Shown here: positions 33,938 to 58,639 of the stretch, piece after piece | Layout: every line of letters begins with the position of its first letter | Position numbering within the stretch: position 1 is the stretch's first letter | DNA from: Methanosarcina sp. MSH10X1 | GTDB lineage: Archaea; Halobacteriota; Methanosarcinia; Methanosarcinales; Methanosarcinaceae | Direction of reading: 5' to 3' | Assembly (NCBI RefSeq): GCF_004099695.1 | Contig: NZ_SCHL01000006.1 | Coordinates: 1-64,000, forward strand | Length of the DNA: 64,000 bases | Position numbers and translations under genes: made by a program | Notes under the pieces: generated by a model | Database searches by the model: none | Told to the model about the DNA's origin: nothing | Seen by the model: the letters and a program-made list of their open reading frames with translations, nothing else

Positions 33938-35566
33938 TCAAGCCTGCTTCAGAAGAACTTTCATATCCTCTTCGACGGTTGTACTGGGCCTGAGATTGAA
34001 GTTTTCAACCAGCACTTTAACCACATTAGGTGAAAGGAAAGCCGGAAGTGTCGGACCGAGGGTAATATTCTTTACGCCGAGACTCAGAAGGGCGAGCAGA
34101 ACAAGCACGGCTTTTTGCTCATACCAGGCTATATTATAAGAGATAGGCAGGTCGTTTATGTCCTTAACCCCGAAAGCCTCCGCAAGCTTCTGGGCAATTA
34201 CCACAAGCGAGTAAGAGTCGTTGCACTGCCCGGCATCGATTACTCTCGGAATTCCTCCGATATCGCCAAGATCAAGTTTATTATAGCGGTACTTGGCGCA
34301 ACCTGCAGTAAGAATGACGGTATCTTCAGGCAGGGCTTTTGCGAAATCCGTATAATAAGCTCTTTCCTTATGCCTGCCGTCGCAGCCTGCCATAACCATG
34401 AACCTGCTTATTTTCCCGGCTTTTACGGCATCAACAATTTTATCCGCAACCGAGAGAGCTGCCTCATGTGCAAAGCCTGCGGTTATAGTCCCGCTTTCGA
34501 TGGGTTCGGGAGGCTTGCTCATTCTTGCTTGCTCTATGAGAGGGGCAAAATCCTTCGTGCCGTCATCTTTTTCGTAGATGTGGGTAAGTCCTTCAAACCC
34601 AACAATGCCTGTGGTATAAATCCGGTTTTTATACGACTCCCTTGGAGGAATTATGCAGTTTGTAGTCATGAGGATAGGACCATTAAATTTCTCGAATTCC
34701 TCATTCTGTTTCCACCAGGCATTCCCGTAATTGCCTGCGAAGTTATCACATTTTTTGAAGGCAGGATAGGTGTTTGCGGGCAGCATCTCCCCATGCGTAT
34801 AAACGTCAATTCCCGTGCCCTTGGTCTGCTCAAGAAGCTGTTCCAGATCCTGCAGATCGTGCCCACTGATCAGGATTCCGGGCCTATCCCTTACCCCGAT
34901 GTTAATATCAGTCGGTTCGGGGTTTCCGTAGGTTTCGGTATTTGCTTTATCGAGAAGGGCGAGCACGGATACGCCTTTTTGCCCGCATTCGAGTACCAGG
35001 CCGAGCAGAGCTTCCAGACCCAGGCTGTCGTCAGTGGTAGAAACCAGCCCTTTTTCTATAAATTTATAGATTCCCTCATCCCTGTATCCGAGGATGTAGG
35101 CATGGTGAGCATAAGCTGCCATTCCTTTCAAGCCGTAGGTAAGAAGTTCCCGGAGAGACCTGATATCCTCGTCCTGAGTGGAATGAACCGCAACGTCAAG
35201 ACTTTCTATATTTTCCGGAGTAACTGTAGCCACGGCAGGCAGGTCCTTTTCAGCAGCGAGACTTTCGGCTGGCAGTTTTTCCTTGATCTCGTCTCTAAGC
35301 TTAAAGCCTTTGTTTAGAAGAGACTCAATTTCCTGCCTGTCAAAATTGGTATTTGTAAGGGTTGCAAAGAAGCTGTCAAGTACAAACCTGTCGGTTGCTT
35401 CTTCATTAAGGCCTGCAGCCCTTGCTTTCAGGTTATAGAATGAAATACTCTTGAGTACATAGAGCAGCCTGTCCTGAAGGTCCGCAACTTCCCCTTTCTT
35501 GCCGCAAACCCCATTTTTCGTACAGCCTTTTACATTAAGCGCTTCCTGGCATTGGTTACAGAACAT
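33938..35566 (-). CDS. hcp: Hybrid cluster protein (hydroxylamine reductase)
   Basis: Hcp carries a cubane [4Fe-4S] cluster and a hybrid Fe-S-O cluster. It reduces hydroxylamine in vitro and nitric oxide to nitrous oxide in bacteria, protecting against nitrosative stress. The N-terminal cluster motif is C3-x2-C6-x8-C15-x5-C21. Later hybrid-cluster ligand motifs are visible: [24 protein letters not shown] and [10 protein letters not shown]. The 542-residue length is normal. It is monocistronic, and AT-rich direct repeats lie upstream (35647-35719). It is expected in the cytoplasm of strict anaerobes. Confidence 0.95.
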
Positions 35567-36024: not shown

Positions 36025-37605
36025 ATGAGCAGAAAAATCGTTTTTCCAAAGGTAATGTGCACCCAGCACCCGGATTCGGCGTCGAAATATATCTCGACGC
36101 AGGAAGAACCGGCAGAAGCAATAGAGGCTGCAACGGTTTTCGGCTGTGACGAATATATGCCGGATTACGAGGGGAAAGCCACACCTTACCACCAGAACGT
36201 CCAGATCGTATCAAAATTCGTAGAAGAAACGGACCTTGTTCCCGGAAAAGATTTTTTCATCACTCCCAGGGCTCCGAGTGCAGTTCAGGAAAACCGGTTC
36301 AGGCAGCTCATGGTTATGATGTCGATTGCCGAGGCTAATTACAATGCCCTTGAATATTCGGATGTCCAGGCAATCAATGAGTTCGTGCATCCCATGACAG
36401 GCAGCGTCAGGGAAATTATTGAAGCCCAGCAGCATATGGTAGATGTGAGTGAACTTGCAAAAAAGGAATTCAGGTTCTCGATGGAAGTCCCGCGCATAAT
36501 TCCGCTTATCGAAGACGCTCCTGCGCTGCTGCATGCAAAGGAACTTGCCGAAAGCACGATCCAGGCCTAGAAAGAACGTTTTGGGGCAATTCCGGACAGG
36601 CTCAGGATATTTCTGGGCAAATCCGATTCTGCTCTCTCATTCGGGCATGTTGCGAGTACACTTTCCTGCAAATACGCAATAAACGAACTTTCCGAGCTGA
36701 ACCTCGAACTTGACACCAAAACCGGAATTATCTTCGGAGCAGGGACTCTGCCTTTCAGGGGACACCTTGACCTGAAAAACGCAGAGAATTTTTTCAGAGA
36801 ATACCGGGGAGTCGGAACCATTACTCTCCAGTCCGCGCTCAGGTACAGCCATGAAAAAGGGGACGCTGAAGCCCTGGTAAAGCTTGCAAAGGATAGGTTG
36901 CCGGAGACCCCTGAGCTCCTTTCCGCCGAAGAAAAAGAAGAGATCGTAAACTTCATCGGGATCTTCGGGGCGGAGTACAGCCGGACGCTCAGGCAACTGG
37001 CTCCGATGATAAAACGGGTAGCTGACCTTCTCCCCCAGCAGCGGGACCGTCTTATGCATAAAGGGACAGGAGGCTATTCAAGAAACGCTCCTGACATTTC
37101 GGGCCTGGTCAAACTCTGCCGTACCGATATCGGAAAGGATCTGGAGGACTGCATGCCTGCCGAAAACCTGAACCTGCCCAGGGCGATAAAGTTCACGGGC
37201 GCACTTTACTCCATTGGCCTGCCTCCGGAATTCATAGGTACAGGCCGCGCCCTTAAAGAAGCGAGGGAAAAACTTGGAGAAGCCGCCTGCGAAAATCTGC
37301 TCACCAAATACTTCCCTTCCCTTGCAGGTGACCTGAGTTTTGCATCCGGATACCTGGACCTCAATGTAGCTTCCCGTTTCCTGTCCGAAGCATGCCTGAA
37401 AGAAATCCGCAGAGATCTTGAGATCGTGCGTGAGACCTTTGACCTTGAAAACAGGCCCGAACCCTCGTACCGCATCCTGCTGGAGATGATGCAGCCTGAC
37501 CTCCTTCAGGCAGGAGGTGCAGGGACTTGCATGGATGAAGAAGTATCCCAGCTTGTATGTTCGACCCTCACCAAAATGGGAAAAATAAGAAAGGCGCTGG
37601 GTTAA
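36025..37605 (+). CDS. ppcA: Archaeal-type phosphoenolpyruvate carboxylase with in-frame TAG
   Basis: PpcA carboxylates PEP to oxaloacetate, feeding the partial TCA pathway and glutamate/aspartate synthesis in methanogens. The N-terminal half (36025-36567, 181 codons) starts MSRKIVFPKVMCTQHPDSASK. TAG follows at 36568-36570, and the same frame stays open for 344 codons to TAA at 37603-37605. The second half has family features (KSDSALSFGHVASTLSCKYA, ITLQSALRYSHEK, KGTGGYSRNAPD). The total of 526 residues is the normal family length, and no frameshift is needed. The TAG may be read as pyrrolysine, be a real nonsense mutation, or be a sequencing error. No other confident gene in the window contains or ends with TAG. 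Confidence 0.88.
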
Positions 37606-37684: not shown

Positions 37685-40219
37685 TTAAACCCCCTTAAAA
37701 TAGTGCCCTGTCGTATATTCAACTCCTCTTGCAGGTTTTAGCCTTGTTTCTTTTCCTGCAAGAGCTTCTTTGTATGCCTTTATAATATCCTTGATCTCGG
37801 TTTCTGTGTTGAAAGAAAGGTCGAGCCGGAGCACATCTACGCCGTACCCTTTCAGGTTTCCCGCATACTTCAGCATATCAAGCACTTTTGAGTTATAAAT
37901 AAGGGTGCGGGTTCCCAGGCGCTTTACCGGAAATTCCGAGCCTCCCTGGTCAACAAGAAGTACTTCGCTGTTCTTTCTTACCATCCTTCGGTCAATAAGG
38001 GGCTTCAAAAGGTCATTTTCCGTAATAAGCATAAGTTCTCTGCCGTAAACGGAAATTTCGGTCTGTCCTGAGCCTTTACAGGTTTGAAGTGCCTCAGAGA
38101 TATTTTTTATCTCGCTAAGGTTGAGTTCGCTCGAAAGAGTTACCCGGTACGCCCCTGCCTGGTAGAGCGTACTGGCTGTGAAAGCGTTGAAAATATTGAA
38201 CTCCTTTCCTGCGGCAAAGGGTATGGAAAGCTCTTTTGCAAGTTGTGCAGCCCCGAGTTCGGAACAGGTTATCCCGAAGCCTGCGGCTTTTATTTTTTCC
38301 AGCAGGGGCCCGAGTTCATCCAGTTCACGGTCATGGTTTATCAGGGGAACCCGGAAGACGAGCTCGACTCTTTCGGCTTTCAAATCCTCAAGTTTTTCCG
38401 CATTCTCAGGCGCGCTCAACACTTCAAATTGTGAAATCGGGACGTATACTATATCCGCACCGGCAAATGCGGCTGCACAGACGGAAGAGCTTTCATTTAC
38501 ATCAACGCTCAGGAGAGGATGCTTTGAAAGGGTATTTCTTTCCCGGGTCAAATTCCTGTTGTTCTCAGAATCACACAGGTAATTCAAATCTGCCAGGTTC
38601 GGGTGCTTTTGCCCCTTCTTATTTGCACTGAGGATTTTCTCCAGCAAAAGGTCTGCGGCTTTTCTCCTTGTATTCTTCAGTACGCCGACCGGGATGAAGA
38701 TATTTTCATCAGCTTCAATCTTGATGGATGCGGCTTCAAAAGGAGTGTCCCCAAGGCTTTCCATTGCCTTTCTTATCTGCTCGGCCGTTGTTGGGGCTTT
38801 TTCGGCTTCCTGAATAACGTAATCGTCCGCGAATTCCGCGATGGGAGCCTTCTCTCCGGCCTCCCTGAACTTTCCGTTCTCTCCCGCAATCTCAACCGTA
38901 AACCGCTCCCCCTTCTTGGCCCTTGCTTCCAGGCTCACAGGAAGGGTTTTCAATTTTACTTTCTGGAGGGTATCGAGTAGCTGCGTATCTGTTGTGAGAT
39001 AGAGTTCGTCGCCTTTCTGCACTGCTCTTCCGGTTTTGGAGCTGATCTCAAGCCCTGCTTTTTCACCCTTTTTTGCACTTTTTACGTGCTCGCCTGAAAT
39101 CGTGATTATGCCTGTAACTGCCGAGCCAAGCATCCTTTCCCGCGTGAAAATGCTTATGCCGTCTTTTACCCGGATATCTTCGTTCAGGCGGACTGTAAGT
39201 TTTGTGTTCCCTTTCGAACGGGAAATATCAAGGACTTTTCCAAGGAATGCCCCGTAGTTCGAACTATACCTGGGATGGGATACGCCCTTCTCTCCAAGTA
39301 CGAAACCTCGCGTAAAGCCCCTGTAAAAGAGTTTTGCTAGCTCGGCTTCCCTTGATACGAGTTCCTCTTTTGTCGGATTCTCGCCTGGCTTGCAGATGCC
39401 TTCGACTGCGGCTTTATAGGCGGCAGCACTCGCGGTAACATACTCGGGCTTTTTCATCCGCCCTTCGATTTTAAGGCTTACTACCCCTGTTTTTACGATT
39501 TCCTCAAGCCCTGTGAGTGTGGAAAGTTCGGCACAGCTTATGGGATAACTGCCTCCTGTATGCTTTTCGTCAATATCCTTGCCGTCTACCACAAACCTGT
39601 ACCTGCGCCGGCAGGGCTGGGCACAGGCTCCCCGGTTTGCACTCCTGTCGTGGAGAAAACTGCTGAAAAGGCATTTGCCCGAATAGGAGTAGCAAAGGGC
39701 TCCGTGGACGAAAACCTCAATTTCCGCCTTCGAGTGGTCCACAATATCCTTTACCTCGGCTGTAGTAAGTTCCCTTGAGACTATAACCCTTTTTGCTCCA
39801 AGCCCTGCTACAAAAAAGACTCCTCCTTTATTGTGGACCGTCAGCTGGGTGCTTCCGTGAAGTTCCAGATCCGGATAGGTTTCCTTTAAAAGCTTGAGAA
39901 GCCCCAGATCCTGCAGGATAATTGCATCGATTCCGGCTGCATATGCACGATCTACGATCTCAAGCGCGTGCTGCAGCTCTTTTTGCTTGATGGGAATGTT
40001 GAGAGCCAGGTAAACAAGCACCCCATGTGAATGGGCAAGTTTCACGGCTTCATCAAGGTCTTCGAGAGTGAAATTCTTTGCACCCTGGCGGGCATTGAAT
40101 TCCCCTACCCCGAGATAGACAGCATCAGCTCCTCCTCGAATTGCGGCAAGCAAGGCATCTTCATCACCAGCGGGAGCCAGGATTTCCGGAGAAGTACAGG
40201 TAAAATTTTTGGCAGGCAT
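37685..40219 (-). CDS. Peptidase U32 family protein with DUF3656
   Basis: An 844-residue protein of the U32 family, best known for YegQ/UbiU/RlhA-type proteins that take part in tRNA or rRNA hydroxylation or quinone hydroxylation; true protease activity is doubtful for many. The U32 signature is EVFVHGALCYSYSGKC (about 170-185), with further cysteines (RGACAQPCRRRY, about 197-208) likely to hold an Fe-S cluster. The N-terminus shows EILAPAGDEDALLAAIRGGADAVY-type TIM-barrel sequence. A DUF3656-like region occupies about 380-560, followed by a second barrel-like region. RNA modification is the more likely role. Confidence 0.87.
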   Translation of the reverse strand: MPAKNFTCTSPEILAPAGDEDALLAAIRGGADAVYLGVGEFNARQGAKNFTLEDLDEAVKLAHSHGVLVYLALNIPIKQKELQHALEIVDRAYAAGIDAIILQDLGLLKLLKETYPDLELHGSTQLTVHNKGGVFFVAGLGAKRVIVSRELTTAEVKDIVDHSKAEIEVFVHGALCYSYSGKCLFSSFLHDRSANRGACAQPCRRRYRFVVDGKDIDEKHTGGSYPISCAELSTLTGLEEIVKTGVVSLKIEGRMKKPEYVTASAAAYKAAVEGICKPGENPTKEELVSREAELAKLFYRGFTRGFVLGEKGVSHPRYSSNYGAFLGKVLDISRSKGNTKLTVRLNEDIRVKDGISIFTRERMLGSAVTGIITISGEHVKSAKKGEKAGLEISSKTGRAVQKGDELYLTTDTQLLDTLQKVKLKTLPVSLEARAKKGERFTVEIAGENGKFREAGEKAPIAEFADDYVIQEAEKAPTTAEQIRKAMESLGDTPFEAASIKIEADENIFIPVGVLKNTRRKAADLLLEKILSANKKGQKHPNLADLNYLCDSENNRNLTRERNTLSKHPLLSVDVNESSSVCAAAFAGADIVYVPISQFEVLSAPENAEKLEDLKAERVELVFRVPLINHDRELDELGPLLEKIKAAGFGITCSELGAAQLAKELSIPFAAGKEFNIFNAFTASTLYQAGAYRVTLSSELNLSEIKNISEALQTCKGSGQTEISVYGRELMLITENDLLKPLIDRRMVRKNSEVLLVDQGGSEFPVKRLGTRTLIYNSKVLDMLKYAGNLKGYGVDVLRLDLSFNTETEIKDIIKAYKEALAGKETRLKPARGVEYTTGHYFKGV

Positions 40220-57653: not shown

Positions 57654-57967
57654 GATAAGCACATTTGAGATAAGCACATAATACTCTGGCAACTTAGTTA
57701 AAAGTTCAGAGTGTTTATTCAGCTCATTTTCTGAAAGTATCGGTAGATGTAAACAGCTGAACAGCCAGGTATAGACATTCTTACTTATATATAGAACGTT
57801 TTAAAGTTGATTTAGACAGGCTTTTTTCTACAAAATTTTTAAATTGCACCCTGATTTTGTAACTCCGGTTTAACAGATGCAATTAATGTTATAAACTTTT
57901 ATATAATGCAATGTATATATTACATCAGATTTAAGTTTAACAAACTAAACAGATAGTGGGGAATAAA
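57654..57967. promoter_or_regulatory. Promoter region of the Met-rich protein gene
   Basis: Just after cysE the word AGATAAGCACAT is repeated (about 57653 and 57670). ATGTATATATTACAT (57911-57925) is an imperfect palindrome with ATGTA/TACAT arms containing a TATA box, 43 bp before the ATG. No RNA gene is visible. Confidence 0.4.
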
Positions 57968-58639
57968 ATGATCAAATCTCGGATAGTAAAGTCAGCGTTG
58001 CTGCTGGTTTTCATAGGAATAATAGTAATTGCACTAATAGAACCTATCGCAGGACAGGCTGATCATGAAGAGAGTATGATGGACGATGATCATGACGAGG
58101 ACATGATGGACGATCATGATGAGGATCTAATGGACGAGCATCATGAAGACATTATGGGAAATCAAACTATGATGCAACATATGATGCACCATATGATGGG
58201 AAATCAAACAATGATACCCTATATAACGGGGAATCAAACAGTAACCCCGTGCATGATGGCAAATCAGACAATGATGATGCCTGTTATGATGGGAAACCAA
58301 ACAATGATGATGCCATTTATGATGATGCCTGTTACAATGGATAACCAAACAATGATGATGCCATTCATGATGATGCCTGTCATGAGGGGAAATCAAACTA
58401 TGATGCCCATGATGGGGAATCAAACAATGGCTATGCCTTTCATGATGGAAAACCAGACAATGGCTATGCCTTTCATGACGGCGAATCAAACCATGATGCC
58501 TGTTATGATAGGAAATCAGACAATGATGATGCCCCATATGGTGGGAAATCAAACCTTCAGATGGGACGGACAGCACTGGTGGGATGACCAGAACCACCGG
58601 CGCTGGGATGGCAACAGATGGTTGAATAATAGCCAGTGA
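57968..58639 (+). CDS. Secreted Met/His/Asp-rich repeat protein with NQT sequons
   Basis: I do not recognise a family. From ATG 57968 the protein (223 residues) has a signal peptide (SALLLVFIGIIVIALIEPIAG), an acidic His-rich stretch (DDDHDEDMMDDHDEDLMDEH), and then twelve short repeats of the form GNQTMMMPFM with Met clusters. The tail is Trp/Asp-rich (RWDGQHWWDDQNHRRWDGNR). Asn-Gln-Thr sequons occur twelve times, so it could be densely N-glycosylated outside the cell. Methionine and histidine clusters are typical of Cu(I) or Ag(I) binding in the envelope; that role is inference. A GTGGGG site precedes the ATG, and a terminator hairpin follows at 58761. Confidence 0.85.
   Translation: MIKSRIVKSALLLVFIGIIVIALIEPIAGQADHEESMMDDDHDEDMMDDHDEDLMDEHHEDIMGNQTMMQHMMHHMMGNQTMIPYITGNQTVTPCMMANQTMMMPVMMGNQTMMMPFMMMPVTMDNQTMMMPFMMMPVMRGNQTMMPMMGNQTMAMPFMMENQTMAMPFMTANQTMMPVMIGNQTMMMPHMVGNQTFRWDGQHWWDDQNHRRWDGNRWLNNSQ

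What the first reader, a model, noticed from the sequence alone, without database searches (positions are those of the whole stretch)
36568..36570. In-frame TAG in PEP carboxylase: pyrrolysine, nonsense or error
Seen: the PEP carboxylase frame is open from 36025 to 37605 except for one TAG after codon 181. The two halves together give the normal family length of about 526 residues, with no frameshift. All other confident genes in the window that I checked end in TAA or TGA, none in TAG. Known: Methanosarcina decode TAG as pyrrolysine through PylT/PylS and use TAG rarely as a stop. Inference: the enzyme may be made by read-through with pyrrolysine in a central anabolic enzyme, far from methylamine metabolism, or be a fresh null mutation or base-call error.
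Basis: partly seen in the sequence, partly recalled or inferred. Interest (0 to 1): 0.87.

Follow-up and report, generated by a model that had tools for sequence, protein, structure and literature searches.

The report
Amber codon inside PEP carboxylase gene
A methane-producing archaeon carries a single TAG "stop" in the middle of an otherwise intact gene for a central metabolic enzyme, and because this organism can read TAG as the rare amino acid pyrrolysine and has other non-methylamine genes with long-conserved internal TAGs, the enzyme is probably still made in full.

Summary
In detail: ppcA (archaeal PEP carboxylase, window 36025-37605) is intact except for one in-frame TAG at codon 182 (36568-36570). 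The genome is a Methanosarcina species with a complete pylT-S-B-C-D cluster and an amber-containing mtmB. All 22 other intact Methanosarcina ppcA genes have TGG at this codon, so TGG became TAG in this lineage. The site is variable outside the genus (Tyr, Cys, Ser). The frame shows no other decay; pairwise dN/dS is about 0.1 on both sides of the TAG.

A survey of 66% of the genome found five otherwise intact frames in which a Pfam domain spans an internal stop. All five stops are TAG (5/9 TAG candidates against 0/35 TAA or TGA). Two of them, a second DNA ligase and a PAS/GAF histidine kinase, keep the TAG at the same codon in 10 and at least 8 species.

Best explanation: pyrrolysine read-through acquired by near-neutral substitution, as shown for Thg1 of M. 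acetivorans; a new member of a known kind. A recent null remains possible, because ppcA is lost in several relatives and pyruvate carboxylase is present. A base-call error is less likely but could not be checked. There is no protein evidence yet.

The parts
36025..37605 (+). ppcA, archaeal-type PEP carboxylase, 526 codons interrupted by one TAG
   Evidence: TIGR02751 and PF14010 end to end when read through; predicted fold matches 3odm, TM-score 0.86
36568..36570 (+). in-frame TAG, codon 182; TGG in all 22 other intact Methanosarcina ppcA genes
36025..36567 (+). frame before the TAG: 181 codons, the predicted product if UAG terminates
   Evidence: about a third of the family profile only
36571..37605 (+). 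frame after the TAG: 344 sense codons and TAA; holds conserved blocks such as GxGxLPFRG (238-246) and TGxxYSIGxPPExIGTG (391-407); first possible start codon at 36898
   Evidence: dN/dS 0.11-0.12

Best explanation
The TAG arose by a single G-to-A change from TGG in this Methanosarcina lineage and is decoded as pyrrolysine by tRNA-Pyl(CUA) and PylS, giving a full-length 526-residue PEP carboxylase with Pyl in place of Trp182, probably alongside some 181-residue termination product. The residue sits at a variable position near the end of a helix, so the replacement is tolerated and needs no special role for Pyl: a near-neutral acquisition, as in Thg1 of M. acetivorans. Shown here: the TAG, its one-base origin, the intact and constrained frame, the complete pyl cluster, and conserved TAGs in other non-methylamine genes of the genus. 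Inferred: actual read-through, its efficiency, and activity of the Pyl enzyme.
For: Intact tRNA-Pyl(CTA), PylS, PylB, PylC, PylD in the same genome and mtmB with its TAG. Codon 182 TGG in 22/22 other intact Methanosarcina ppcA; Tyr, Cys or Ser in other genera; Glu in the solved C. perfringens enzyme; helix 171-186 in the model. No frameshift and no change at any position invariant in the other 31 sequences; dN/dS 0.110 before and 0.120 after the TAG against the nearest relative. Survey of 2.36 Mb: Pfam domain spans the internal stop in 5/9 TAG candidates (mtmB, ppcA, DNA ligase, transglutaminase-like, PAS kinase) but 0/16 TAA and 0/19 TGA (Fisher p = 1.2e-4, 5.7e-4 without mtmB). DNA ligase paralog: TAG at codon 32 in 10 species, dN/dS 0.10-0.16 after it. 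PAS/GAF kinase: TAG in all 12 full-length orthologs, same codon in the 8 examined.
Against: No peptide, transcript or read data. The ppcA TAG is confined to this one species, unlike the kinase and ligase TAGs. ppcA is dispensable in the genus: 8 of 31 genomes lack it or hold remnants and pyruvate carboxylase is present. Own-branch dN/dS (0.15-0.20) is somewhat above the sister branch (0.08-0.10), though the intervals overlap. Leaving mtmB out, four TAG of four against the mutational expectation has p of only 0.014-0.03, and two of the four are shared ancestral codons.
Confidence: 0.68

Rival explanations
1. Recent null mutation: TGG to TAG knocked out ppcA, the 181-residue fragment is inactive, and oxaloacetate comes from pyruvate carboxylase; the gene has not yet had time to decay.
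For: ppcA is absent or decayed in 8 of 31 Methanosarcina genomes, four of them about 99% complete (G008, G010, G012, G024). Pyruvate carboxylase subunit B is intact here and in 29 of 31. A Methanolobus halotolerans ppcA has one TAA at codon 31 in an otherwise open frame. Own-branch dN/dS slightly raised.
Against: Across the genome sample the domain-spanning stops are all TAG, none TAA or TGA, whereas nonsense mutation would give all three. The gene shows no second lesion and no change at invariant sites. With tRNA-Pyl present, a UAG would be expected to be at least partly suppressed.
Confidence: 0.21
2. Sequencing or assembly error: the true codon is TGG.
For: The nearest alternative, TGG, is one base away and universal in the genus. 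The TAG is seen in one assembly only; no second strain was found in the collections searched.
Against: Errors would also create TAA and TGA, and none was found spanning a domain in 2.36 Mb. The long frames of the window are otherwise open and the assembly is 99.95% complete with 0.17% contamination.
Confidence: 0.08
3. Regulatory switch: full-length PEPC is made only when pyrrolysine is available, tying oxaloacetate supply to methylamine growth.
For: Decoding would depend on the pyl genes, which lie about 7 kb from an mtmB gene.
Against: The TAG is not conserved in any other species, pyruvate carboxylase gives a bypass, and no unusual RNA structure follows the TAG (z = -1.25).
Confidence: 0.03

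Closest known systems
Thg1 (tRNA-His guanylyltransferase) of Methanosarcina acetivorans with an in-frame amber codon (PMC2933860; Heinemann et al. 2009 cited there)
   Same: Non-methylamine enzyme; amber gained in one species only; intact frame; Pyl not essential for activity; explained by neutral evolution.
   Different: Pyl was physically observed in Thg1; for ppcA there is no protein evidence. PEPC is an anaplerotic carbon-metabolism enzyme.
Methylamine methyltransferases MtmB, MtbB, MttB
   Same: In-frame UAG read in a Methanosarcina genome with pylTSBCD; this genome's own mtmB has it.
   Different: There Pyl is catalytic and the UAG is conserved across the family; in ppcA it is species-specific and at a variable site.
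Predicted Pyl candidates of Theil Have et al. 2013 (PMC3639795), such as the sensory histidine kinase cluster 16
   Same: Internal UAG in an otherwise conserved frame; the kinase found here (G000:C4) may belong to that cluster (by annotation only, not tested by sequence).
   Different: The terms phosphoenolpyruvate and ligase do not occur in that paper's main text; its supplementary list was not read.
Archaeal-type PEP carboxylase of Clostridium perfringens (PDB 3odm)
   Same: Full-length homolog with the same fold.
   Different: No internal stop; Glu aligns with residue 182.

Membership tests
Archaeal PEP carboxylase (TIGR02751 / PF14010) | Full-length profile match above curated cut-off | tested here: met
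   556.4 bits against cut-off 146.05, profile 2-506/506, with the TAG read through; PF14010 396.8 bits
Archaeal PEP carboxylase (TIGR02751 / PF14010) | Enzyme activity | not testable with these tools
   Needs expression and assay
Pyrrolysine-containing protein | In-frame TAG within a conserved, constrained frame | tested here: met
Pyrrolysine-containing protein | Complete Pyl synthesis and decoding genes in the genome | tested here: met
   tRNA-Pyl, PylS, PylB, PylC, PylD all above curated cut-offs
Pyrrolysine-containing protein | Pyl residue observed in the protein | not testable with these tools
   Needs mass spectrometry
Pyrrolysine-containing protein | TAG conserved at the same codon in relatives (true of MtmB-type proteins, not of Thg1) | tested here: not met
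   TGG in all 22 other intact Methanosarcina ppcA; no other TAG in 112 family genomes
Pseudogene (null allele) | Further lesions or relaxed selection | tested here: inconclusive
   No further lesions; own-lineage dN/dS 0.15-0.20 against 0.08-0.10 in the sister, intervals overlapping

The most novel reading that the evidence does not exclude
Full-length PEP carboxylase is made only when pyrrolysine is available, so that an anaplerotic enzyme has come under the control of methylamine metabolism through a stop codon.
Probability: 0.05. Interest if true: 0.8.

Novelty: new member of a known kind. Interest (0 to 1): 0.5.

Why it matters
If read through, this is a further likely case, after Thg1, of pyrrolysine entering a non-methylamine enzyme by a one-base change, here in central carbon metabolism. 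It shows the sense/stop ambiguity of UAG in Methanosarcina acting on ordinary genes, which annotation pipelines would split or call pseudogenes. The genome-wide contrast (TAG only, no TAA or TGA) and the deeply conserved TAGs in a second DNA ligase and a histidine kinase name specific proteins in which the extent of UAG ambiguity can be tested.

Tried and rejected
Restart after the TAG: rejected, no start codon for 109 codons. A second intact ppcA elsewhere in the genome: none. A special downstream mRNA element: folding is not unusual (z = -1.25). Literature on PpcA in Methanosarcina: no paper held. Heinemann et al. 2009 is not held and is cited through PMC2933860 and PMC3639795. The first family tried, PF14821, was a wrong accession and says nothing.

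Full report
Observation. Window 36025-37605 encodes archaeal PEP carboxylase with exactly one internal stop, TAG at 36568-36570, codon 182. Read through, the product matches TIGR02751 and PF14010 end to end, and its predicted structure matches the solved archaeal-type enzyme 3odm. The gene is single copy. It lies between a divergent prismane-family gene (33938-35566, -) and a convergent U32 peptidase gene (37685-40219, -), so it shares an operon with neither. No start codon follows the TAG for 109 codons. None of 34 long ORFs in the window ends in TAG; in the genome sample TAG ends 37 of 1256 ORFs of at least 200 aa.

Organism and decoding machinery. The window belongs to a 3.56 Mb Methanosarcina genome whose ppcA groups with those of G006 and G029. 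tRNA-Pyl (anticodon CTA), PylS (409 aa), PylB, PylC and PylD are contiguous and intact on contig C22. An mtmB gene with its TAG lies about 7 kb away.

Origin of the TAG. In all 22 other intact Methanosarcina ppcA genes the codon is TGG; in other genera it is TAT/TAC, TGT/TGC or AGC. One G-to-A change in this lineage explains it. The position is near the end of a confidently predicted helix (171-186) and aligns with Glu in the C. perfringens enzyme. The site therefore tolerates different residues (inference).

State of the gene. There is no frameshift, and no departure at any position invariant in the other 31 sequences. Pairwise dN/dS against the nearest relative is 0.110 before and 0.120 after the TAG. 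A three-way estimate gives 0.15-0.20 on the own branch against 0.08-0.10 on the sister branch, with overlapping bootstrap intervals; the implied neutral fraction of the branch is 0.06-0.13, with intervals that include zero and reach about 0.3-0.5. An old null is unlikely; a recent one is not excluded.

Are ambers read through in this genome? I surveyed 2.36 Mb (66%) for internal stops with coding potential on both sides. Among 44 candidates without an early restart codon, a Pfam domain spans the stop in 5 of 9 TAG, 0 of 16 TAA and 0 of 19 TGA cases (Fisher p = 1.2e-4, or 5.7e-4 without mtmB). Mutational opportunity predicts TAG only 34-42% of the time; with mtmB left out, four TAG of four has probability 0.014-0.03 by that measure, a modest figure.

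Two of those four are old shared codons. The DNA ligase paralog (G000:C44) has TAG at codon 32 in 10 species, with dN/dS of 0.10-0.16 after it, while six other full-length orthologs have sense codons. The PAS/GAF histidine kinase (G000:C4) has a TAG in all 12 full-length orthologs, at the same codon in the 8 examined; two rows also list a TGA that my realignment did not show. The transglutaminase-like gene has TAG where relatives have AAG, AAA or AGG. Such conservation inside constrained frames is hard to explain unless UAG is decoded (inference).

Why a null remains possible. Eight of 31 Methanosarcina genomes have no ppcA or only remnants, although some of these genomes are incomplete. A pyruvate carboxylase subunit B type protein (TIGR01108) is strong in 29 of 31, including this one. 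A Methanolobus ppcA has a TAA at codon 31 in an otherwise open frame.

Comparison with the known. Thg1 gained an amber in M. acetivorans alone; [quoted passage not shown] the same review describes UAG serving both as stop and as sense codon in these organisms (PMC2933860). Theil Have et al. (PMC3639795) propose neutral acquisition for further genes and list a histidine kinase cluster in M. acetivorans and relatives. The ppcA case works like Thg1; membership among proven Pyl proteins is untested.

Verdict. Pyl read-through by near-neutral TGG-to-TAG change 0.68; recent null 0.21; error 0.08; regulatory switch 0.03.

Noticed in passing
L182-L191; G000:C44:93072-94817 (-): A second ATP-dependent DNA ligase has an in-frame TAG at codon 32 in 10 Methanosarcina species (sense codons in six others) with dN/dS of 0.10-0.16 after it; a TAG-free ligase paralog is also present (G000:C7:2604-4274). 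I found no report of it in the papers searched.
   Followed up: partly
L236-L243; G000:C4:66415-69333 (+): A PAS/GAF sensor histidine kinase of about 970 aa has an internal TAG in all 12 full-length orthologs, at the same codon in the 8 examined; perhaps cluster 16 of PMC3639795.
   Followed up: partly
L212; G000:C33:85197-85880 (+): A transglutaminase-like protein has an in-frame TAG in this species only, where relatives have AAG, AAA or AGG.
   Followed up: partly
L187 (G003 ligase): The DNA ligase paralog of genome G003 has two in-frame TAGs, codons 32 and 139.
   Followed up: no
L057 and L059 (Methanolobus halotolerans SY-01): ppcA with a TAA at codon 31 in an otherwise open frame, and a separate 58-codon ppcA fragment elsewhere in the genome.
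   Followed up: no
G000:C11:277710-279302 (+): Another PAS kinase frame with a TAG just before the recognised PAS domain; orthologs not examined.
   Followed up: no
window 58150-58600: A repetitive frame with DDACYDGKPNND-like units broken by a TAA at 58342, overlapping ORF 57956-58639; nature unknown.
   Followed up: no
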